DNA of 64,000 bases from Solirubrobacter pauli (GTDB lineage Bacteria > Actinomycetota > Thermoleophilia > Solirubrobacterales > Solirubrobacteraceae): the NCBI RefSeq assembly GCF_003633755.1, contig NZ_RBIL01000001.1:3643426-3707425 (forward strand), in the 5' to 3' direction. This document shows positions 23,998-64,000 of the stretch, one piece after another. How positions within the stretch are numbered: position 1 is the stretch's first letter; each line of letters opens with the position of its first letter. Made by a program: the position numbers and the translations under genes. The notes beneath the pieces are model-generated. The model saw only the letters and a list, made by a program, of their open reading frames with translations. It had not been told where the DNA came from and ran no database searches.

Positions 23998-24536
23998 GCG
24001 GTCGACCCTAGCGAGGTTGCCTCGCCGTCACGGGCGCCGTGGCGCTCAGCATCGGACGATCGGGGGGTGCGTCGCGCGCGCTCTTGTGCGGGTGAGCGGC
24101 TGCGCCGGGTGCGCCCAGGCGCGGGCCCGTTCGCGCGTTCGCCGGCCGGCTCTGCCACGCGAACGTCGAGTTGTGTACCTATGCGGTCGTTTTCTCGACG
24201 TTCGCGTGGCACGGGCCACGCGAGTGTTCACTTTTCCACCTGTGCGGTGCGAAAGTGCACGCTCGGTGCGGCTGAGCCCGCGGGCGCGGGTTGGCCCCGC
24301 GCGGGGGCTCGCCGGCCCCAGCCGGCCTGACCAGCCCAGAGCGCGACGCCCGACGGTGTGCTTCCGAACGCGGCGACGAAGCCCGGCGCGTCGCGCGCTG
24401 AGCGCCACGGCGACGGCGCGGCGGGGCGATGGCGCGATGGCGCGGGCGGGGCGATGACGCGGCGCGGCGATGGCGCGCCGGCTGTGCGGCGGGCACGCCA
24501 CCTCTGCGCGGCCGAGGCCAGCCGCGCGGGACCTTC
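23998..24536. repeat. Gene-free, hairpin-rich region
   Basis: About 540 nt without a convincing gene. It holds two tandem hairpin units (24153-24211 and about 24214-24264), described separately. A GC hairpin has arms near 24274 (GAGCCC) and 24305 (GGGCTC), followed by GCCGGC-CCCA-GCCGGC. From about 24424 to 24477 there are imperfect copies of GGCGATGGCGC. Open frames here are arginine/proline-rich shadows without start signals. I see no tRNA or known riboswitch. Confidence 0.6.
24153..24264. repeat. Two tandem hairpin units with a conserved loop
   Basis: Unit 1: an 18-bp arm at 24153-24170 (TGCCACGCGAACGTCGAG) is perfectly complementary to 24194-24211, with a 23-nt loop. Unit 2: 24222-24234 pairs with 24252-24264 with two mismatches. 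The loops share ACCTRTGCGGT at 24177-24187 and 24238-24248, exactly 61 nt apart, and both units begin GCCACGCGA. Arms differ in sequence while pairing is kept, as in a structured RNA or a palindromic repeat family. Confidence 0.75.
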
Positions 24537-45894: not shown

Positions 45895-47270
45895 GTCGCC
45901 GCCGCCGGACGCGGCTTCCCCGGCACGAGCAGCGCCAGCAGCGCACCCACCGCCAGCACCGCCGCGCCGACCCACGCCGCGCTCGTCATGCCGTCGACGA
46001 ACGCCTGCGGGGAGGCGTAGGAGCCGCTGGACGCGAACACCGACGCGAGCACGGCCACGCCCAGCGCGCCGCCGACCTCGCGGATCGCGTTGGTCGCGCC
46101 GCTCGCCTGCCCGGCCTCCTGCGGCCGGACGGCGGCCAGCACCGCGTTGGCCGTCGGCGCGAACACGAGCGCCATGCCCGTGCCGGCGAGGATGAACGGC
46201 GGCACCAGCGAGGAGTAGGCCACGTCGGGCGTGGAGACCGACGCGATCCAGCCGATGGCGACCGCCTGCAGCGCGAGCCCGGCGAACATCAGCGGGCGCG
46301 AGCCGATCCGGTCGCTGAGGATGCCCGCGATCGGCGCGACGAGCATCGGCATCGCGGTCCACGGCAGCGTCCGCAGCCCGGCCTCGAGCGGCGAGAGGCC
46401 CTGCACGACCTGGAAGAACTGCGCGAGCAGGAAGATCGAGCCGAAGACGCCGAAGTACATCGCCAGCGACACGCCGTTGGAGGCGGCGAAGGCGCGCGAG
46501 CGGAAGAAGCGCATCGGCAGCATCGGGGCCGGCGCGCGCAGCTCCCACGCGACGAACGCGATCAGCCCGACCACGCCGGTGATGATCGAGCCGAGCACGG
46601 TGGCCGACGTCCAGCCGAGCGCCTCGGCGCGGACGATGCCGAACACCACGCCCAGCAGGCCGACGCCGGCGAGGCCGAGCCCCGGCAGGTCGAGCCGGTC
46701 GGCGGGGCCGAACGACTCGCTCAGGCGCGTGCGGGCGAGCGGCAGCAGCGCGAGGCCGATCGGCACGTTGATCCAGAAGATCCAGTGCCAGGAGATGCCG
46801 TCGACGACCGCGCCGCCGATCAACGGGCCGAGCGCGACGCCGAGGCCGGAGATGCCCGACCACAGGCCGATCACGAGACCGCGCTTGCCGGGCGGGAACG
46901 CCTCGGACAGCAGCGTGAGCGTGAGCGGGGTCACGATCGCGGCGCCGGCGCCCTGCAGCGCGCGGGCGGCGATCAACGCGCCGGTCGACGGCGCCAGCGC
47001 GGCGAGCGCTGAAGCGACGGTGAAGATGCCGAGGCCGACCAGGAACATCCGCCGGCGCCCGAAGCGGTCGCCGAGCGCGGCGCCCGTCATCAGCAGCACG
47101 GCGAAGGACAGCGTGTAGGCGTTGACCGTCCACTGCAGGTCCTCGAGGCCACCCCCGAGGTCCGTGCGGATCGACGGCAGCGCGGTCGTGACGACGAGGT
47201 TGTCGAGCACGACCATGAAGAGGGCGATCGAGACGATCGCGAAGGTCCAGCCAGAACGAGAACGCGACAT
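45855..47270 (-). CDS. MFS drug efflux transporter (DHA2/EmrB-QacA type)
   Basis: A 471-aa proton-driven efflux pump with about 14 hydrophobic helices. The DHA2 signatures are FMVVLDNLVVTTALPSI in helix 1, GDRFGRRRMFLVG in the 2-3 loop, and RALQGAGAAIVTPLTLTLL with SGISGLGVALGPLIGG for motif C. ATG 47270 lies directly next to a 24-bp palindrome (47271-47294) fitting a TetR operator. No TetR gene is adjacent, so control is probably from elsewhere. The last 40 nt overlap the acyltransferase gene. Confidence 0.92.
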   Translation of the reverse strand: MSRSRSGWTFAIVSIALFMVVLDNLVVTTALPSIRTDLGGGLEDLQWTVNAYTLSFAVLLMTGAALGDRFGRRRMFLVGLGIFTVASALAALAPSTGALIAARALQGAGAAIVTPLTLTLLSEAFPPGKRGLVIGLWSGISGLGVALGPLIGGAVVDGISWHWIFWINVPIGLALLPLARTRLSESFGPADRLDLPGLGLAGVGLLGVVFGIVRAEALGWTSATVLGSIITGVVGLIAFVAWELRAPAPMLPMRFFRSRAFAASNGVSLAMYFGVFGSIFLLAQFFQVVQGLSPLEAGLRTLPWTAMPMLVAPIAGILSDRIGSRPLMFAGLALQAVAIGWIASVSTPDVAYSSLVPPFILAGTGMALVFAPTANAVLAAVRPQEAGQASGATNAIREVGGALGVAVLASVFASSGSYASPQAFVDGMTSAAWVGAAVLAVGALLALLVPGKPRPAAATQEGAEPVLVAAS

Positions 47271-47341
47271 GGAAGTAAGTGTTCACTCACTTCCATGTCG
47301 GCGCAAGGGCGCGAACGCGCCAAGTTAGTGGTCGCTTACTT
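47271..47341. promoter_or_regulatory. Two TetR-type operator-like palindromes
   Basis: O1 AAGTAAGTGTTCACTCACTT (47273-47292, within a 24-bp palindrome) and O2 AAGTTAGTGGTCGCTTACTT (47322-47341) share the consensus AAGTNAGTG-NN-CRCTNACTT, centres 49 bp apart. O1 touches the MFS start codon. Spacing and sequence suit a TetR-family repressor of the pump. Confidence 0.7.
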
Positions 47342-47364
47342 AAACGACCTGGACGTTCAAGTGG
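47336..47364. repeat. Imperfect 29-bp palindrome upstream of the MFS gene
   Basis: Centred on T47350, the sequence ACTTAAACGACC-T-GGACGTTCAAGT pairs at 10 of 12 arm positions. It shares TAAACGWCC-W-GGACGTTCAAGT with the element at 62449-62477, including 12 identical right-arm bases. It overlaps O2 and contains the cupin gene's TGA stop. Confidence 0.6.
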
Positions 47365-47740
47365 GCTGGTCGGCCCAGGGGACCTCGACGGAGTCCTCGG
47401 TCGGCGAGTCGCGCGCGACGACGTACTCGGCCGGCTCGGTGGCCGACGTGTTCGTGACCGTGTGGGTCTCGCGCGGCGGCACGTAGAGCATGTCGCCGGC
47501 CTCGACGAGGAGCGACTCCTGCAGCTGGTCGCCGAACCGGATCTCGACCGACCCGGAGAGCATGTAGAGCGCGCTCTCGCAGTTGTCGTGGTAGTGCGGG
47601 CGGCCCTGCGCGCCGGCGGGCACGCGGAAGATGCCCATGTACAGGTTGTGCGCGCCCGTGGTGGCCTGCGAGATCTCCGCGCCGCCGACGACGCCGCGCG
47701 GGACGTCGCGCTCCTCGCCCGAGGGCTTGACCAGCTTCAT
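47357..47740 (-). CDS. Cupin-domain protein
   Basis: A 127-aa single-domain cupin with well-kept metal motifs: GRPHYHDNCESALYMLSGSVE (cited as PHYHDNCESALYMLSG) supplies two His and a Glu, and VPPRETHTVTNTS the third His. ATG 47740 overlaps the SDR stop (ATGA), so it is co-translated with the dehydrogenase. It may act on the same substrate or bind a product. The reaction is unknown. The end reaches the imperfect palindrome upstream of the MFS gene. Confidence 0.85.
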   Translation of the reverse strand: MKLVKPSGEERDVPRGVVGGAEISQATTGAHNLYMGIFRVPAGAQGRPHYHDNCESALYMLSGSVEIRFGDQLQESLLVEAGDMLYVPPRETHTVTNTSATEPAEYVVARDSPTEDSVEVPWADQPT

Positions 47741-48564
47741 GACGTCATCCCCGTGAACTGGCCGCCGGTGAGGTTGAGCACCTGGCCGTGGACGAAGTTC
47801 GACCACGGCGAGCAGAGGAAGAACACGCCGCCGGCGGCCTCCTCCGGCGTGCCCGGGCGGCCGATCGGGATCAGGGCCGGCGCCATCGAGCGCATCTGCT
47901 CGGGGATGCCGAGCTGCACCGTCTGGCCGTCGATCTCCATCGTGTTCTCGGAGTCCTTGGACGCCGTCAGGCGCGTCTCGATCCAGCCGAACGCGACCGC
48001 GTTGACGTTGATCTTGAACTGGCCCCACTCCTTGGCCAGCGTCTTCGTCAGGCCGACCACCGCCGACTTGCCCGCCGAGTAGTTCGCCTGGCCGGCGTTG
48101 CCCATCGTGCCGCTGATCGAGGACACGTTGACGATCTTGCGGAACACCTCGACGCCCTGCTCGCGCTCGGCCTTGGCGGGCTCGCGCAGATGCGGCGCCG
48201 CGGCGCGGATGACGCGGAACGGGACGATCGTGTGGATGTCGAGCATGCGCTGGAACGCGTCGTCGGACATCTTGTGGATCGGCGCGTCGATCGTGTAGCC
48301 GGCGTTATTGACGATGATGTCGATCTTGTCGAAGGCGTCGATCGCCGTCTTGACCAGCTCGTCGGCGGCGCCGTCCTTGGTCAGGTCACCGCCGTAGACC
48401 GCCGTCTCGCCCTCGATCTCCGACGCCGCCTGCTCGGCGAGGTCGGTGTCGAGGTCGTTGATGATCAGCTTGGCGCCGTGCTCGGAGAGCAGCTCGGCCG
48501 TCGCCCGGCCGATGCCGCGCGCCGACCCGGTCACGATCGCCACTTTGTCGTCCAGGACTCCCAT
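47737..48564 (-). CDS. Short-chain dehydrogenase/reductase (FabG-like)
   Basis: A 275-aa NAD(P)-dependent oxidoreductase. The cofactor motif is VTGSARGIGRA, then NNAGYT, the catalytic Ser in NVSSISG, and YSAGK with Tyr and Lys, followed by INVNAVAFGWIETRL. The acidic residue in INDLDTD after strand 2 suggests NAD preference. It resembles SDRs acting on 3-hydroxyacyl-CoA. ATG 48564 lies 8 nt after minus-strand TATCGT (48578-48573). Its stop overlaps the cupin gene. Confidence 0.9.
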   Translation of the reverse strand: MGVLDDKVAIVTGSARGIGRATAELLSEHGAKLIINDLDTDLAEQAASEIEGETAVYGGDLTKDGAADELVKTAIDAFDKIDIIVNNAGYTIDAPIHKMSDDAFQRMLDIHTIVPFRVIRAAAPHLREPAKAEREQGVEVFRKIVNVSSISGTMGNAGQANYSAGKSAVVGLTKTLAKEWGQFKINVNAVAFGWIETRLTASKDSENTMEIDGQTVQLGIPEQMRSMAPALIPIGRPGTPEEAAGGVFFLCSPWSNFVHGQVLNLTGGQFTGMTS

Positions 48565-57931: not shown

Positions 57932-58786
57932 GTGGACGACCCCGTGATCCTGACGTGCGCCGTCTCCGGCGCGCTCGCCTCGCGCGACCAGTGCCCGGCG
58001 ATCCCGTACACGCCCGCCGAGTACGCCGCCGAGGCGCGGCGGATCGTCGACGAGGGCGGCGTGATGATCCACATCCACGCGCGGCGGCCCGACGGCACGC
58101 CGTCGCACGCGGTGGAGGACTTCCGCGCGATCACCGAGGCGATCGTCGCGGAGGTCGGGCGCGACCTGATCATCAACTACTCGACGGGCGCGCTCGGCGT
58201 GCCGATCGAGACGCGCCAGGCCTACCTGCGCGAGCTGCGGCCGGACGTCGGCGCCCTGAACATGGGGTCGATGAACTACGCGAAGTACTCCGCGCGCCGG
58301 AAGGACTTCGTCTTCAAGGCGGTGTTCGAGAACTCGTTCGACAGCATCGGCGCGCTCCTGGGCACGATGGTCGAGCACGGCATCCGGCCCGAGCACGAGT
58401 GCTTCGACTCCGGGCACGTGGCCTCGCTCGACCCGCTGCTGGACATGGGCGTGCTGAAGCCGCCCCTGCAGGTGTCGTTCGTGATGGGCGTGACCGGCGG
58501 CATCCGCCCGACGGCGCGCAACGTCGCCCACATGGCCGAGCAGGTGCCCGACGTGCCGCACCAGTGGGGCGTGATCGGCATCTCCCGCGGGCAGTGGGGG
58601 CTGCTCGCGGCGGCGCTCTCCCTGGGCGGCAACATCCGCGTCGGGCTGGAGGACAACTTCTACCTGCCCGAGGGCGAGATGGCGCGTTCCAACGGCGACC
58701 TCGTCGCGCGGGGCGCGCGGATGGCGGTCGACGCCGGCCGGCGCCTGGCGACCGTGCACGAGGCGCGGGAGTTGCTCGGGCTGTGA
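57932..58786 (+). CDS. Beta-keto acid cleavage enzyme (BKACE, DUF849)
   Basis: A 284-aa full-length member of the family that includes 3-keto-5-aminohexanoate cleavage enzyme; the reaction uses acetyl-CoA and a beta-keto acid and releases acetoacetate plus a CoA ester. Metal and substrate motifs: MIHIHARRPDG, NYSTGALG, ALNMGSMNYAKYS, ECFDSGHVASL, SFVMGVTGGIRPT and RVGLEDNFYLPEG with the catalytic-site Glu. It overlaps the thioesterase gene as GTGA. Acetoacetate so formed could be re-activated by the ligase at 16814-18712, which is inference. Confidence 0.9.
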   Translation: MDDPVILTCAVSGALASRDQCPAIPYTPAEYAAEARRIVDEGGVMIHIHARRPDGTPSHAVEDFRAITEAIVAEVGRDLIINYSTGALGVPIETRQAYLRELRPDVGALNMGSMNYAKYSARRKDFVFKAVFENSFDSIGALLGTMVEHGIRPEHECFDSGHVASLDPLLDMGVLKPPLQVSFVMGVTGGIRPTARNVAHMAEQVPDVPHQWGVIGISRGQWGLLAAALSLGGNIRVGLEDNFYLPEGEMARSNGDLVARGARMAVDAGRRLATVHEARELLGL

Positions 58787-59541
58787 GCTTCTACGTGGAG
58801 CTCGGCGAGGGGCGCTTCCGCGCGACCGAGCGGACCTCCGGACCGTGGGACCCCGCGCACCAGCACGCCGGGCCGCCGTCGGCGCTGCTGCTGCGCGCGT
58901 TCGAAGGGATGCCGTCGGACCTGGTGATCGCGCGCATGACCGTCGAGATCCTCGGGCCGGTGCCGATCGGGGAGATGCTCGTGACGACGGCGGTGGAGCG
59001 GCAGGGCCGATCGGTCGAGCTGCTGTCCGGCGAGCTGGCCGCGGACGGGCGCGCCGTCATGCGGGCACGGGCGTGGCGGGTACGCGCGTCGCCGGTGGAA
59101 CATAAAGGGCCTGGCCCTTTATGTTCGCTGCCGGACGCGGAGGACGTCCCGCCGCCCGCGCTCGGCGAGGCGTACGGCTACGCGCACGCCGTCGAATGGC
59201 GCTGGGCGCGCGGCGGCTGGACCGACCGTGGGCCGGCGACCGTGTGGACGCGGATGAAGGTCCCGCTGGTGGACGGCGAGGAGCCGTCGCCGCGGCAGCG
59301 CGTCGTCGTGGTCGCGGACTCCGGCAACGGCGCGTCGAACGTGCTCGACTGGGACCGCTACCTGTTCGTCAACACCGAGCTGACCGTGCACTTCGTGCGC
59401 GAGCCGGTCGGCGAGTGGGTGCTGCTGGACGCCGCGACGGAGATCGCGGAGGGCGGCGCGGGCCTGGCCGCGTCGGTGCTCAGCGACCGGTCGGGACCGG
59501 TTGCGCGCGGCGCACAGGCGCTGTTCGTCGCGCCACGATGA
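58783..59541 (+). CDS. Acyl-CoA thioesterase-like (double hotdog) protein carrying an in-frame palindrome
   Basis: A 252-aa TesB-like thioesterase family protein. The first hotdog begins FYVELGEGRFRATERTSGPW and AGPPSALLLRAFEG; the second has NGASNVLDWDRYLFVNTELTVHF (in pieces NVLDWDRYLFVN and LTVHFVREP). It would hydrolyse acyl-CoA. Codons 106-115 (EHKGPGPLCS) come from a perfect 29-bp palindrome at 59098-59126 and use AT-ending codons, including AAA, TTA and TGT, unlike the rest of the gene. It looks like a small in-frame insertion between the two hotdog domains. The gene overlaps the convergent P450 gene by 62 nt. Confidence 0.82.
   Translation: MSFYVELGEGRFRATERTSGPWDPAHQHAGPPSALLLRAFEGMPSDLVIARMTVEILGPVPIGEMLVTTAVERQGRSVELLSGELAADGRAVMRARAWRVRASPVEHKGPGPLCSLPDAEDVPPPALGEAYGYAHAVEWRWARGGWTDRGPATVWTRMKVPLVDGEEPSPRQRVVVVADSGNGASNVLDWDRYLFVNTELTVHFVREPVGEWVLLDAATEIAEGGAGLAASVLSDRSGPVARGAQALFVAPR
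59098..59126. repeat. Perfect 29-bp palindromic element inside a coding sequence
   Basis: Arm GAACATAAAGGGCC (59098-59111), centre T, then its exact reverse complement (59113-59126). It begins on a codon boundary, is AT-rich against its surroundings, and shares GAACATAAA and the CC-W-GG centre with the element at 62449-62477. Confidence 0.85.
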
Positions 59542-60775
59542 CGCGGCCGTCGGCCCGGGGCGCGAGCGTGATCGAGCGGTGCTTGGTGCCTTCGGAGCGG
59601 GGCGTCACGGGCCGCAGGTCGACGACGGCGTCCGCGATCGCGCGCAGCACCCAGCGCATCTCGAACAGCGCGAAGCTCGCGCCGAGGCAGCGCCGCACGC
59701 CGCCGCCGAACGGGATCCACGTGTAGGTCCCGGCCGGCTGCTCGAGGAAGCGCTCCGGGCGGAAGGCGAGCGGGTCGGGGTAGATGTCCTCGCGCGTGTG
59801 CACCAGGTGGATGGAGGGCACGACCGCGACGCCCGCGGGCACGGTGTAGCCGCCGATCTCGTACGGCGCCTTGAGCATGCGGATCACGCCCGGGATGACC
59901 GGGCGCAGGCGCAGCGTCTCCTTGCAGACCGCGTCCAGGTAGTCGTCCTCGCCCTCACGCAGACGCGCCCACGCCGCCGGGTGGCGCGCGAGCCGCTCGA
60001 GCGCCCAGGCGAGCGCGGTCGCGGTCGTCTCGTGGCCGGCGGCGAGCAGCGTGACCAGCTCGTCGATCAGCGTCACGTCGTCCATGTCCGTGCCCGCCAT
60101 CAGCAGCGAGAGGATGTCGTCCTTGGACGCGAGCTCGGGGTCGGCGCGGCGGGCGGCGATCAGCTCCGCGAGCAACCTGTCGACCTCGGCGCGCACGCGG
60201 CCGTAGACGTAGGCGTTCGCGCGCGTGCCGCCGAGCACGGACAGCACGAGGGAGCTCGGCCGGCCGACGAACTCCAGCAGCGCGTTGACCGCGTCGCGCA
60301 GGCGCTCGTCACGGCTGCCGAAGATCGCGCGCATGATGATCTCGAGCGTCAGCGCCTGCGTGCGCAGGCGGGTCGGGAGCGGCTGCCCCGTCGGCCACGA
60401 CGCGACCTCCTCGGCGGCGATCGCGCGGATCATGTCCCCGTACGCCTGCATCCGCTCGCCGTGGAACGGCGGCAGCATCAGCTTGCGTTGCTGCAGGTGC
60501 TCGGAGCCGTCGAGCAGCAGCACGCTGCGCGGGCCCAGGAGCGGCTTGAGGATCGCGTTGCCCTCGCCCGCGTGGAGCACGTCCGGGTCGCCGGTGAAGA
60601 CCTGCTTGACGTGGTCGGGGTCGCCGAGCAGGACCCACGGCGCGTGCCGCTCGACGTGCAGCGTGATCACGTCCCCGTAGCGGGCGCGCAGCCGGCGCGA
60701 GTACGGGCCGGGGCGCGAGAGCCAGCCCATCGTCTGCAGGAGGTGTGGACCTGACGGGCCGGGCGGAAGGCTCAT
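59480..60775 (-). CDS. Cytochrome P450
   Basis: A 431-aa haem monooxygenase. The haem-ligand motif is FGGGVRRCLG with Cys363. The I-helix oxygen-activation motif is AAGHETTATAL, the K-helix ExxR is ETLRLRP, and the PERF element is FRPERFL. The N-terminus PPGPSGPHLLQTMGWL is proline-rich without a clear membrane anchor, as in soluble bacterial P450s. It resembles CYP102/CYP132-like fatty-acid or terpene hydroxylases only in general terms; substrate unknown. ATG 60775 overlaps the Usp stop by 4 nt, making it third in a transporter-Usp-P450 operon. No ferredoxin is adjacent. Confidence 0.93.
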   Translation of the reverse strand: MSLPPGPSGPHLLQTMGWLSRPGPYSRRLRARYGDVITLHVERHAPWVLLGDPDHVKQVFTGDPDVLHAGEGNAILKPLLGPRSVLLLDGSEHLQQRKLMLPPFHGERMQAYGDMIRAIAAEEVASWPTGQPLPTRLRTQALTLEIIMRAIFGSRDERLRDAVNALLEFVGRPSSLVLSVLGGTRANAYVYGRVRAEVDRLLAELIAARRADPELASKDDILSLLMAGTDMDDVTLIDELVTLLAAGHETTATALAWALERLARHPAAWARLREGEDDYLDAVCKETLRLRPVIPGVIRMLKAPYEIGGYTVPAGVAVVPSIHLVHTREDIYPDPLAFRPERFLEQPAGTYTWIPFGGGVRRCLGASFALFEMRWVLRAIADAVVDLRPVTPRSEGTKHRSITLAPRADGRVIVARRTAPVRRAQPVPTGR

Positions 60776-61260
60776 AGTGGCTTCGGTTTCGGCTTCGGCT
60801 TGGGCTTTGAGTGCGGCGGCTTCGGCTTGGGCTTGGGAGGCGGCTCGCTCGGGTCGGGCGCGCCCTCCGGCCAGGTCATGATCACCGTGCAGGGCGCGTG
60901 ATCGATCACCCAGCGCTGATCATGCCCGATCGAGTGCGGGCCGCTGTGACGTCCGTCACGCGCGAGGACCAGGACGTCGTGCTCGGTGGCCAGCTCGTAG
61001 ACGATCGTCTCGGCGACGCCACTCTCGGCGCGCTTGTCGGCCTCGCGGCCGAGCCGCTCCTCGGCGTCCTCGAGCAGCGCCTCCGCGGCCTCGCCCGCGA
61101 GCGCGTGCATGCGCTCCATCACCTCGCTGTGGCGGTGCCCGCGGCCGGGCAGGTCGACCGTGTCGACGTGCACGAGCGTGACGTGGCTCGTGCGCAGCGT
61201 CTTGACCGCGTCGATCGCGGCCTCCCACCCGCCTTCGGTGATCCAGGCGAGGACTCTCAC
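60772..61260 (-). CDS. Universal stress protein-like with Pro-Lys tail
   Basis: A 162-aa protein of Usp-like fold starting at GTG 61260. The strands VRVLAWITEGGW, VTLVHVDTVD and DVLVLARDGRHSG lead to a C-terminal strand APCTVIMTWPEG. The typical ATP-binding GxxGxG is replaced by DGRHSGPHSIGHDQRW, so nucleotide binding is uncertain. The last 30 residues are a proline/lysine repeat (PPKPKPKPP and KPKPKPKPL), which may bind acidic surfaces or the envelope. It overlaps both neighbours by 4 nt, so it is translated with the transporter and the P450. Confidence 0.78.
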   Translation of the reverse strand: MRVLAWITEGGWEAAIDAVKTLRTSHVTLVHVDTVDLPGRGHRHSEVMERMHALAGEAAEALLEDAEERLGREADKRAESGVAETIVYELATEHDVLVLARDGRHSGPHSIGHDQRWVIDHAPCTVIMTWPEGAPDPSEPPPKPKPKPPHSKPKPKPKPKPL

Positions 61261-62435
61261 GTCACCAGCCACAGGGCGACGGTAGCGCCGATCAGGATCG
61301 GCGGCACCGACAGCGCGCCGAGCACGTGGAACTCGCGGTGGCTGACGTCCTCGCCGCGCTCGCGCAGGACGCGCCGCCAGATCAGCGTGGCGAGGCTGCC
61401 CGTGTAGGTGAGGTTCGGCCCGGCGTTGACGCCGATCAGCACGGCCAGCACGGTGGCGGGTCCGGCCGCGGCCGCCGCGGGGAGCAGGACGAGCAGGGCC
61501 GGGACGTTGTTGAGGACGTTGGCCAGCGCCGCCGCGAGGAAGGTCGCGCCGAGCAGCGCCAGCAGCCCCGTGCCCTGCGGCAGGACGTCGGCGACGACGT
61601 CCGCGAGCCCGGCGTCCGCCAGCGCGCGCACGATCAGGCTCAGCCCGAGCACGAAGGCGATCAGCGGGAGGTCCATGGCCTTCAGGCGTGGACCCATGAG
61701 GAGTGCGCCGGCGGCGGCGGGCCAGGCGGCGTCGAGGCCGAGCGGGCCGGCGGCGAGGAAGCCGGCCAGCGTCAGCGCGAGGATGACGAGCGGGCGCCGC
61801 GGGATCGGCGGCAGGTCGGTGCGCGGGGTGCGGCCGGGCGTCTCGAGCGCGGTCCGGAACACGCGCCGCAGGACGAGCCACTCGATCGCGACCGCGACCG
61901 CGGTCGGCAGCGCCATCTTGGCCGCGAAGCCCGCGAACGACAGGTCCGTCGCCTTGAACGCGAGCAGGTTCGTCAGGTTGGAGATGGGGAGGAGCAGGCT
62001 GGCCGAGTTGGCCAGGTGCGACGTCGCGTAGACGTGCGGTCGGCCGGGCATCCGCGCCTTCGCGGCGGCGGCGAACGCGGCGGGCGTGAGCAGCACGACG
62101 GTCGCGTCCAGCCCGAGCACCGCGGTGACGGCGACCGCGGCCGCGAACACGTACGCGAGCAGCCGTGGCCCCGACCCGCGCGCCCGCACGGCCATCCGCG
62201 CCGCGAGCGCGTCGAACAGACCGGCCCGCTCACACCCGTCCCCGAGCACGAGCAACGAGGCCAGCACGGCGAGCGTGGGTGCGAGCGACTCGGCCTCGTC
62301 CAGCGCGTCGCGGGGCTCGAGCACGCCGATCGCGAGCAGCAGCGCCGCGCCGGCGAGCGCCACCAGCGCCTCGGGCGCCCGCCGCGCGATCGCGGCGGCG
62401 ATCGCCGCGACGAGCGCCGCGGCAGCGACGATCAC
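61257..62435 (-). CDS. ArsB/NhaD-type anion transporter (SLC13-like)
   Basis: A 392-aa membrane transporter with about 10-11 helices. The ion-transporter-superfamily signature is HLANSASLLLPISNLTNLLAF, with a second half-motif LANVLNNVPALLVLLPAA and VNAGPNLTYTGSLATLIW. This resembles arsenite permease ArsB and related proteins, but no arsR or arsC lies nearby, so the substrate could be another anion or organic acid. GTG 62435 is used. A 29-bp imperfect palindrome (62449-62477) lies 13 nt upstream. It heads the operon with Usp and P450. Confidence 0.86.
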   Translation of the reverse strand: MIVAAAALVAAIAAAIARRAPEALVALAGAALLLAIGVLEPRDALDEAESLAPTLAVLASLLVLGDGCERAGLFDALAARMAVRARGSGPRLLAYVFAAAVAVTAVLGLDATVVLLTPAAFAAAAKARMPGRPHVYATSHLANSASLLLPISNLTNLLAFKATDLSFAGFAAKMALPTAVAVAIEWLVLRRVFRTALETPGRTPRTDLPPIPRRPLVILALTLAGFLAAGPLGLDAAWPAAAGALLMGPRLKAMDLPLIAFVLGLSLIVRALADAGLADVVADVLPQGTGLLALLGATFLAAALANVLNNVPALLVLLPAAAAAGPATVLAVLIGVNAGPNLTYTGSLATLIWRRVLRERGEDVSHREFHVLGALSVPPILIGATVALWLVT

Positions 62436-62448
62436 GTGTGCACCGCAC

Positions 62449-62477
62449 GAACATAAACGTCCAGGACGTTCAAGTTC
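62449..62477. repeat. 29-bp palindromic element upstream of the anion transporter
   Basis: Arm GAACATAAACGTCC, centre A, right arm GGACGTTCAAGTTC; 12 of 14 positions pair. It has the same length, first nine bases and CC-W-GG centre as the 59098 element, and shares its right arm with 47336-47364. It lies between the DUF2804 stop and the transporter start on the minus strand. Confidence 0.75.
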
Positions 62478-62478
62478 G

Positions 62479-63117
62479 TCACCAGAGCGCCTCGTGGCGC
62501 TCCATCACGCCGTGGCCCGAGGCGAGCTCGCCCGCGACCGGCAGCGAGCCCGTGAACGTGCCGAACGGCTGCTCGTAGTCGGAGGCGAGGACGAGGTAGT
62601 TCTCCTTCTTGGCCCGGGTGACGCTCGCCGTGAAGCGCAGGTCGCCGACGCCGCACAGGCCGTCGAACGGCTGCGGGCCGACCTCGTGCGGGACGCCGTC
62701 GAGCCAGACGGTGCGCTCGGACGGCGTGCCGTCGTGCAGGCCGTCGACGAGGTTCCAGACGACCGGCGCGCCGTCGGTGGTGACGCCCGCGCCCGCCGAC
62801 CACATCCACGCGGTGCGGCGCGCATGGCGGCCGTGGGACTCGTCGAGCAGGCCGGGCAGGTCGATCGTCTTCCCGAGCACGGTCCCGCGCACGCGCAGCG
62901 GCGTCTTGCGGGTGAAGGCCGGGCCGGTGGTGACCTCGATCGGCGTGCCCCGCTCCAGCGCCAGCGTGAACGGCGCGCGCGTGCCCTCGTGCAGCTGCGT
63001 GCCGTCCCAGACCGCCCACCACGAGCGGCGGATCACGCCGACGCGGGCGTGTGCGACGCACAGCATCACGTCCGGTCCGAACGCGCCCACCCAGTGCCAG
63101 GACTTCCGTAGCGGCAT
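62479..63117 (-). CDS. DUF2804-like protein
   Basis: A protein of 212 aa from ATG 63117 (GTG 63126 adds three residues). It is rich in Trp and beta-strand patterns: HWVGAFGPDVMLCVAHARVG, RRSWWAVWDG, TAWMWSAGAGVTTDG, VVWNLVDGLHD and the C-terminal FGTFTGSLPVAGELASGHGVMERHEALW (as FGTFTGSLP and GHGVMERHEALW). That ending is typical of DUF2804, whose function is unknown; a lipocalin/hydroxysteroid-like beta-barrel is likely. A minus-strand TATCGT (63132-63127) lies 9 nt before ATG 63117. It is divergent from the nitrilase gene. Confidence 0.78.
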   Translation of the reverse strand: MPLRKSWHWVGAFGPDVMLCVAHARVGVIRRSWWAVWDGTQLHEGTRAPFTLALERGTPIEVTTGPAFTRKTPLRVRGTVLGKTIDLPGLLDESHGRHARRTAWMWSAGAGVTTDGAPVVWNLVDGLHDGTPSERTVWLDGVPHEVGPQPFDGLCGVGDLRFTASVTRAKKENYLVLASDYEQPFGTFTGSLPVAGELASGHGVMERHEALW

Positions 63118-63126
63118 GCCGTTCAC

Positions 63127-63136
63127 ACGATATGCT
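63127..63136. promoter_or_regulatory. Overlapping divergent -10 boxes (DUF2804 / nitrilase)
   Basis: Minus-strand TATCGT (63132-63127) serves DUF2804 and plus-strand TATGCT (63131-63136) serves the nitrilase gene through a leader of about 38 nt. The boxes overlap by 2 bp, the same geometry as at 39100-39109. Confidence 0.5.
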
Positions 63137-63146
63137 CAGCCGCCGG

Positions 63147-63164
63147 ATTGACCCGCTGGTCAAT
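63147..63164 (+). promoter_or_regulatory. Palindrome in the nitrilase leader
   Basis: ATTGACC-CGCT-GGTCAAT lies in the transcribed leader, directly before the AAGGAG ribosome-binding site (63166-63171). It could be an operator of the TTGACC/GGTCAA type or a leader hairpin. Confidence 0.5.
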
Positions 63165-63178
63165 GAAGGAGACCCCTC

Positions 63179-64000
63179 GTGTTCGCCGCCGCCGTTCAGC
63201 TGCAGTCCACCCCTGATCGCGATCGCAACCTCGAGGCCGCCGACCGCCTGACGCGGGCGGCCGCGAAGGCCGGTGCCGAGCTGGTCGTGCTCCCGGAGAA
63301 GTGGCCCGCGCTGGGCACGCCGGAGCAGACGATCGCCGCCGCCGAGCCGCTCGACGGAACCGTCGCGCAGTGGGCGAAGGGCATCGCGCGCGAGCTCGGC
63401 ATCGACCTCGTCGCCGGCTCGTTCACCGAGCAGGGCGAGGACCGCCACAGCAACACGTCGCTGCACGTGTCCCCCGACGGCGAGGTCCGCGCGACCTACC
63501 GCAAGATCCACATGTTCGACGTGGAGGTCGGCGGGCGCGTCTACAAGGAGTCCGCGCACGAGGCGCCCGGCGAGGAGATCGTCGTCTCGGAGACCAGCGG
63601 TGGCACCGGCCTCGGCCTGTCCATCTGCTACGACGTCCGCTTCCCCGAGCTCTACCGGATCCTCGCGGTCCGGGGCGCGGAGATCATCGCCGTCCCGGCC
63701 GCGTTCACGTTCGCGACGACGCGCGACCACTGGGAGATCCTGCTGCGCGCCCGCGCGATCGAGGGGCAGGCGTTCGTCGTCGCCGCCAACCAGGTCGGCG
63801 AGCACGCGCCCGGCATCCGCTCCGGCGGGCGCTCGATGATCGTCGACCCGTGGGGCGTGGTGCTCGCGACCGCGCCGGACACGGAGACGTTCGTGGTCGC
63901 CGAGCTCGACCTCGAGCGTCAGACGGAGATCCGTCGCACGCTGCCGTCGCTGGCCAACCGGCGGCCGTCCGCGTACGCGTGGCCGGACCAGGTCACCGCG
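63179..64000 (+). CDS. Carbon-nitrogen hydrolase (nitrilase/Nit2-like amidase), 3' end outside window
   Basis: A cytoplasmic amidase of the nitrilase superfamily, 274 residues visible with no stop before the window ends. The catalytic triad is complete: E40 in LPEKW, K109 in YRKIHMFD and C150 in SICYDVRFPELY. HMFD plus CYDVRFPELYR resembles omega-amidase and deaminated-glutathione amidase (Nit1/Nit2), so repair of a deaminated metabolite or omega-amide hydrolysis is likely. GTG 63179 is firmly supported by AAGGAG (63166-63171) 7 nt upstream, one of the clearest Shine-Dalgarno sites in the window. Confidence 0.92.
   Translation, partial: MFAAAVQLQSTPDRDRNLEAADRLTRAAAKAGAELVVLPEKWPALGTPEQTIAAAEPLDGTVAQWAKGIARELGIDLVAGSFTEQGEDRHSNTSLHVSPDGEVRATYRKIHMFDVEVGGRVYKESAHEAPGEEIVVSETSGGTGLGLSICYDVRFPELYRILAVRGAEIIAVPAAFTFATTRDHWEILLRARAIEGQAFVVAANQVGEHAPGIRSGGRSMIVDPWGVVLATAPDTETFVVAELDLERQTEIRRTLPSLANRRPSAYAWPDQVTA

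What the first reader, a model, noticed from the sequence alone, without database searches (positions are those of the whole stretch)
59098..59126. Perfect 29-bp AT-rich palindrome inserted in frame in a thioesterase gene
Two exact 14-nt arms around a single T lie within codons 106-115, begin on a codon boundary and keep the frame open. The codons used (AAA, TTA, TGT, CAT, GAA) clash with the strict G/C third-position usage around them. The segment falls between the two hotdog domains, where an insertion would be tolerated. This recalls palindromic elements that invade open reading frames in Rickettsia, but here in an actinobacterium.
Basis: partly seen in the sequence, partly recalled or inferred. 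Interest (0 to 1): 0.72.

Follow-up and report, generated by a model that had tools for sequence, protein, structure and literature searches.

The report
Transposase-linked palindromes written into genes
A 29-letter palindrome inside an enzyme gene of a soil actinobacterium (Solirubrobacter) belongs to a family of tiny repeats, probably spread by a REP-type transposase, that keep landing in the same harmless spots of genes: protein linkers, where they add about ten amino acids in frame, and gene ends, where they supply the stop codon.

Summary
In detail: an exact 14+1+14 palindrome at 59098-59126, in frame as codons 106-115 of an acyl-CoA thioesterase, in a coil between its two hotdog domains. 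It is not a one-off. The genome (a Solirubrobacter) has at least 32 relatives of it plus 22 of a sister subtype; reversed-pattern controls give 0. Three lie in the window. The genome's only Y1 (HUH) transposase, a REP-associated tyrosine transposase (RAYT), is flanked on both sides by the same palindrome. RAYTs of four further species are flanked by palindromes too, and the variant follows the RAYT clade. Ten of 32 copies examined lie inside ORFs, always in the one frame open from both sides (E-x-K-x-PG-x-L-x-S). Nine sites supply a TAA stop at gene ends. At orthologous sites other species are empty or carry another subtype at nearly the same position. So this is a RAYT/REP-type element in an actinobacterium; it works like Rickettsia RPEs but is not shown to be one. 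In-frame REPs and REP-supplied stops are already published. New are the host lineage, the untagged perfect palindrome, and repeated re-occupation of the same coding sites. Transposition is inferred, not shown.

The parts
59098..59126 (.). 29-bp perfect palindrome (RAYT-associated REP-like element), in frame in the thioesterase gene; encodes EHKGPGPLC(S)
58783..59541 (+). acyl-CoA thioesterase gene (two hotdog domains), host of the element at codons 106-115
   Evidence: Pfam 4HBT_3 and 4HBT_3C; model m9842c08fcb33, coil at 101-132
62449..62477 (.). second family copy, GAACATAAACGTCCAGGACGTTCAAGTTC, in the gap just after the 3' end of the minus-strand gene 62479-63126 and before the minus-strand gene 61257-62435
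   Evidence: 45.9 bits, E 2.9e-9
47338..47362 (.). third, decayed copy, overlapping the 3' end (TGA stop) of the minus-strand cupin-like gene 47357-48028
   Evidence: 25.3 bits, E 6.5e-4

Best explanation
The palindrome is a non-autonomous REP-like element mobilised, now or in the past, by a RAYT (Y1/HUH tyrosine transposase) that is itself bracketed by two such palindromes. Shown: a dispersed family with sharp ends, flanking of the genome's only RAYT, subtype following the RAYT clade, empty orthologous sites, in-frame copies in ten genes, and stop codons supplied at gene ends. Inferred: the transposase recognises the hairpin on single-stranded DNA and moves it, and copies survive only where harmless (protein linkers in the open frame, gene ends, intergenic gaps). 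The main subtype has exactly one stop-free frame and it reads the same from either strand, so either orientation writes the same peptide (ELKRPGRLS); the other two frames hold stops. In the thioesterase the element forms part of the linker between two hotdog domains and probably has no enzymatic role (inferred).
For: 32 copies in G000, 0 in the control; sister subtype 22 copies, control 0; unrelated flanks; covariation of the arms 0.218 against 0.102, 0 of 500 shuffles. The single Y1_Tnp gene of G000 has family matches on both sides, E 9.5e-5 and 1.5e-5, one running into its own 3' end; the same in S. phytolaccae, and variant palindromes around the other RAYTs. RAYT tree groups as the palindrome subtypes do. 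HUH and Y..NP motifs invariant; best fold match is 4er8, RAYT bound to a REP hairpin. Empty sites in the sister species. Ten intragenic copies all in frame 0. G002, with no Y1_Tnp, has 0 covariance-model hits and 1 pattern hit.
Against: No transposition was observed; the only near-identical genome pair is identical at all 8 loci compared. No conserved GTAG or CGTC tag beside the palindrome. The RAYT scores below NCBIfam's cut-off for REP_Tyr_transpos (66 against 80 bits). The thioesterase site shows replacement of a linker of similar length rather than clean insertion. The link between RAYT and copies rests on flanking and co-variation only; G002 is a single genome.
Confidence: 0.85

Rival explanations
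1. Shared occupation of the same coding linkers by different subtypes reflects one ancestral insertion overwritten in place (gene conversion or re-transposition into existing copies), rather than separate insertions into tolerated sites. The element is still RAYT-type; only its turnover differs.
For: Site L039 is filled in all five species; G001 and G003 share subtype and junctions there while G000, the sister of G003, has another subtype and other junctions. Six of ten G000 intragenic sites are also filled in G004, against about 0.0006 per site expected from density.
Against: At L028, L031 and L035 the sister G003 is empty while G000 and a more distant species are filled with different subtypes, which favours separate insertions. 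The density estimate ignores that few sites are tolerable.
Confidence: 0.35
2. The palindromes are bidirectional transcription terminators or mRNA-stabilising hairpins kept by selection at gene ends.
For: Strong hairpin, -15 to -24 kcal/mol, z about -6; many copies at convergent gene ends.
Against: No T-tract and no terminator-like site found; ten copies lie in the middle of ORFs; bracketing of the RAYT and species-specific subtypes are unexplained. A side-effect on transcripts remains possible.
Confidence: 0.06
3. The palindromes are binding sites of a DNA-binding regulator or chromosome-organising protein.
For: Symmetric, dispersed, with conserved outer half-sites.
Against: The cores change together on both arms into quite different sequences and lengths (29, 31, 33 bp) within one genus; most copies are not upstream of genes.
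Confidence: 0.04
4. Coincidence: codons of the linker happen to form a palindrome.
For: Linker residues are free to vary.
Against: Genome-wide copies with unrelated flanks and 0 controls.
Confidence: 0.005

Closest known systems
REP/RAYT system (REPtron; TnpAREP), PMC2817692, PMC3733652, PMC6006769
   Same: Y1/HUH transposase with Y..NP motif flanked by two palindromes; dispersed short palindromes; species-specific variants; copies near gene 3' ends supplying stop codons; some in frame inside ORFs
   Different: No GTAG/GTGG head; the arms meet with a 1-nt spacer in an almost perfect palindrome; host is an actinobacterium of the genus Solirubrobacter
TIRYT / TIRtron (PMC3733652), Y1 subclass 2.1 (PMC6006769)
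   Same: Y1 transposase genes flanked by inverted repeats without GTAG; published motif GGGGWSAS fits the GGGGTCAG of the sister subtype; some TIRs are self-complementary and dispersed
   Different: The main subtype here (CGTCCWGGACG) lacks GGGGWSAS; the protein subclass was not assigned; subclass 2.1 proteins are described as long with a C-terminal HTH, while these ORFs are about 190 residues
Rickettsia palindromic elements (RPE) and CGTC-tagged REPs (PMC3733652)
   Same: Palindromic repeats inserted in frame inside protein genes
   Different: No CGTC end tag; here a transposase is flanked by the element, while CGTC repeats have no associated transposase; unrelated host phylum

Membership tests
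REP/RAYT (canonical GTAG REPs) | Y1 transposase gene flanked by two copies of the palindrome | tested here: met
   L131:1397-1423 and 1987-2018 around the RAYT ORF; same in L133
REP/RAYT (canonical GTAG REPs) | HUH motif and Y..NP motif; fold of TnpAREP | tested here: met
   Invariant H61-I-H63 and Y120...N124-P125; best PDB fold match 4er8, E 7.2e-8
REP/RAYT (canonical GTAG REPs) | NCBIfam NF047646 REP-associated tyrosine transposase above cut-off | tested here: not met
   Only family hit, but 57-77 bits against a cut-off of 80
REP/RAYT (canonical GTAG REPs) | GTAG/GTGG tetranucleotide at the foot of the hairpin | tested here: not met
   5 of 64 flanks hold GTRG or CGTC in 8 nt, 6.0 expected
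REP/RAYT (canonical GTAG REPs) | Many dispersed copies per genome, species-specific | tested here: met
TIRYT / TIRtron | Flanking inverted repeats with GGGGWSAS | tested here: inconclusive
   GGGGTCAG present around G001 and G005 RAYTs, absent from the G000 and G003 ones
TIRYT / TIRtron | Protein subclass 2.1 with C-terminal HTH domain | not tested
   No reference set of the subclass was aligned; ORFs here are about 190 aa
Rickettsia RPE / CGTC REPs | In-frame copies inside several unrelated ORFs | tested here: met
   Ten G000 genes, with orthologues in other species
Rickettsia RPE / CGTC REPs | CGTC tag at one end | tested here: not met
   Ends are GAAC...GTTC; no CGTC enrichment in the flanks
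Intrinsic terminator | GC-rich hairpin followed by a T-tract | tested here: not met
   0 terminator-like sites in 58000-63500
Mobile element | Observed transposition or strain-level insertion polymorphism | tested here: inconclusive
   Species-level empty sites found; the near-identical pair G001/G006 is identical at the 8 loci compared

The most novel reading that the evidence does not exclude
RAYT palindromes target, or are rewritten at, fixed coding sites: orthologous protein linkers and stop codons act as landing pads whose element is exchanged in place for the subtype of the resident transposase, so that a transposase keeps rewriting short protein segments across a genus.
Probability: 0.3. 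Interest if true: 0.8.

Novelty: new variant of a known kind. Interest (0 to 1): 0.55.

Why it matters
It brings RAYT/REP biology into an actinobacterial lineage, with an untagged, almost perfectly symmetric element. It also gives a natural series of the same coding site (empty, filled, double, other subtype) in sister species. That makes open questions testable: how REPs move, whether they home into existing copies, and how palindromic elements create new protein segments. A palindrome with one stop-free frame that reads the same from both strands is a simple reason why such elements can survive inside genes.

Tried and rejected
Chance palindrome: rejected. Rfam family: no match. Intrinsic terminator: no T-tract, no terminator-like site nearby. 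Canonical GTAG or CGTC tag: not found. Strain-level polymorphism from G001 against G006: identical at every locus compared, so uninformative. Sequence search of the RAYT against the PDB gave nothing, but the fold search did. One Prevotellaceae contig also matched the loose pattern and was not followed. A clean empty site for the thioesterase was not obtained: species without the element have an unrelated linker of nearly the same length.

Full report
The palindrome GAACATAAAGGGCC-T-GGCCCTTTATGTTC occupies 59098-59126 with fully complementary 14-nt arms. It opens on codon 106 of a 252-residue gene starting with GTG at 58783, and the frame stays open. The gene is a two-domain acyl-CoA thioesterase: Pfam 4HBT_3 at 19-99 and 4HBT_3C at 123-249. 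An AlphaFold model (mean pLDDT 93) puts residues 101-132 mostly in a coil between the two hotdog domains, with the lowest confidence at 101-110.

It is one of many. In the genome of the window (G000, 7.1 Mb) a degenerate pattern finds 32 places against 0 for the reversed control. The flanks are unrelated, so the ends are sharp at 29 bp, with a bias to C...G just outside. The consensus is GAA[CG]NTAAA-xxx-CC-W-GG-xxx-TTTANSTTC. Bases 10-12 change on both arms together among subtypes, while bases 4 and 5 are looser; the covariation score is 0.218 against 0.102 for shuffles, with 0 of 500 reaching it. A sister subtype, TAAAGGGGTCWGACCCCTTTA, has another 22 places in G000. The window holds three copies: the given one, 62449-62477, and a decayed one at 47338-47362.

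Copy numbers differ sharply within the genus: the 29-bp pattern gives 28, 37 and 3 in G000, G003 and G004, and 0 in G001, G002, G005 and G006. The GGGGTC pattern gives 22, 21, 53, 122 and 17 in G000, G003, G004, G005 and G001, and 1 in G002. Nearly all other members of the family and order sampled have none, except two genomes with 28 and 6.

The agent is very probably a RAYT. G000 has a single Y1_Tnp gene. Palindrome matches lie on both sides of it: L131:1397-1423, and 1987-2018, which overlaps the gene's 3' end so that its last residues (VKRPGRLSWGA) are written by the element. RAYTs with a similar neighbouring ORF layout in S. phytolaccae, S. taibaiensis and G001 are bracketed by their own variants, and a second RAYT clade is bracketed by TAAAGAGGGACWGTCCCTCTTTA. 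The RAYT tree follows the palindrome subtypes: the G000+G003 pair 100/99, the AGAGGGAC clade 100/99, G001+G004 88/92. The HUH and Y...NP motifs are invariant. NCBIfam's REP-associated tyrosine transposase is the only family hit, below its cut-off, and the predicted fold (pLDDT 87) is nearest 4er8, a RAYT bound to a REP hairpin. The species without any Y1 transposase, G002, has no copies by covariance model and one by pattern.

Where the copies sit. Of 32 examined, ten lie inside ORFs with coding signal on both sides, always in frame 0. The genes, named here from sequence resemblance only, include a para-aminobenzoate synthase-like gene (L019), a carboxylase (L039), two paralogous regulators (L040, L041), a glycosyltransferase (L045) and the thioesterase. 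Translating the subtypes shows why: the 29-bp main form and the 31-bp form each have one stop-free frame, and it reads the same or nearly the same from either strand. The window copy, a rarer core, happens to have two. Nine more sites end a gene in the element: its TAA at positions 6-8 is the stop of one gene, or of both in some convergent pairs.

Comparison across species. In the thioesterase, the closest relative G003 (86% identical) carries a diverged copy at the same site (GAAGATAAAGCCCCAGGTCCTTTAACTTC), while G001, G004, G005 and G002 have an unrelated linker of about 9-10 codons. Among the nine other intragenic sites several are filled in other species by another subtype in frame: L039 in all five species; L019 in G003 and G004 with a decayed relic in G001; L020 in G004 by the subtype of the second RAYT clade. 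L021 holds two tandem copies 33 bp apart in G003 and is empty in three others; L045 is empty in G001 and G004. At gene ends, L031, L028 and L035 are filled in G000 and in one more distant species (G005 or G004) with different subtypes, but are empty in the sister G003. Site L035 gives the cleanest empty/filled comparison, with no visible target duplication. By copy density alone, finding G004 filled at six of ten G000 intragenic sites has a probability of about 1e-17; that ignores selection, which confines survivors to few places. Separate insertion into tolerated sites and in-place exchange both remain open; gene-end sites favour the first, L039 the second.

What is known. RAYTs flanked by REPs, species-specific REPs, REPs near gene 3' ends, REP-supplied TAG stops, in-frame REPs in ORFs (including Rickettsia RPE-4 and RPE-6), and REPs at about the same recB site in two Xanthomonas species are all published (PMC2817692, PMC3733652). 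Y1 genes flanked by TIRs with GGGGWSAS, some self-complementary and dispersed, are published as TIRtrons. PMC6006769 reports that high-GC Actinobacteridae carry only subclass 1.1 proteins, and describes in-frame REPs inside tnpAREP genes themselves. I found no paper on such elements in Solirubrobacter in the searched library, which is not the whole literature.

Judgement. The element is a RAYT-associated REP-like palindrome, a new variant of a known kind. It works like a Rickettsia palindromic element but meets neither the CGTC tag of those repeats nor the GTAG tag of canonical REPs. Shown: family, flanked transposase, agreement of subtype with transposase clade, empty sites, in-frame copies. 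Inferred: single-strand mobilisation by the RAYT, lack of enzymatic effect, and the balance between re-insertion and in-place exchange.

Noticed in passing
window 47265-47300: Near-perfect palindrome CGACATGGAAGTAAGTG/CACTCACTTCCATGTCG over the start of a transporter-like gene (ATG at 47270, minus strand); looks like an operator of a local regulator.
   Followed up: no
window 24153-24211: Exact 18-nt inverted repeat TGCCACGCGAACGTCGAG / CTCGACGTTCGCGTGGCA with a 23-nt loop.
   Followed up: no
L120 (S. phytolaccae, C91:27836-27897): Tandem pair of elements in a membrane-protein gene; a change in the second copy gives an in-frame TAA, so the gene may be broken there.
   Followed up: partly
L118, L213, L120 (S. 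phytolaccae): Tandem element pairs all spaced by 4 nt (33-bp period), which keeps the reading frame.
   Followed up: partly
G001 contigs C37, C85, C48: GGGGTC-type palindromes in pairs 66-77 bp apart, one partner with the variant TTAACGGGTCTGACCCCTTTA: a REPIN-like doublet.
   Followed up: no
G028 (same family, another genus): 28 copies of AAAAGGGGTCTGACCCCTTTT although most sampled relatives have none.
   Followed up: no
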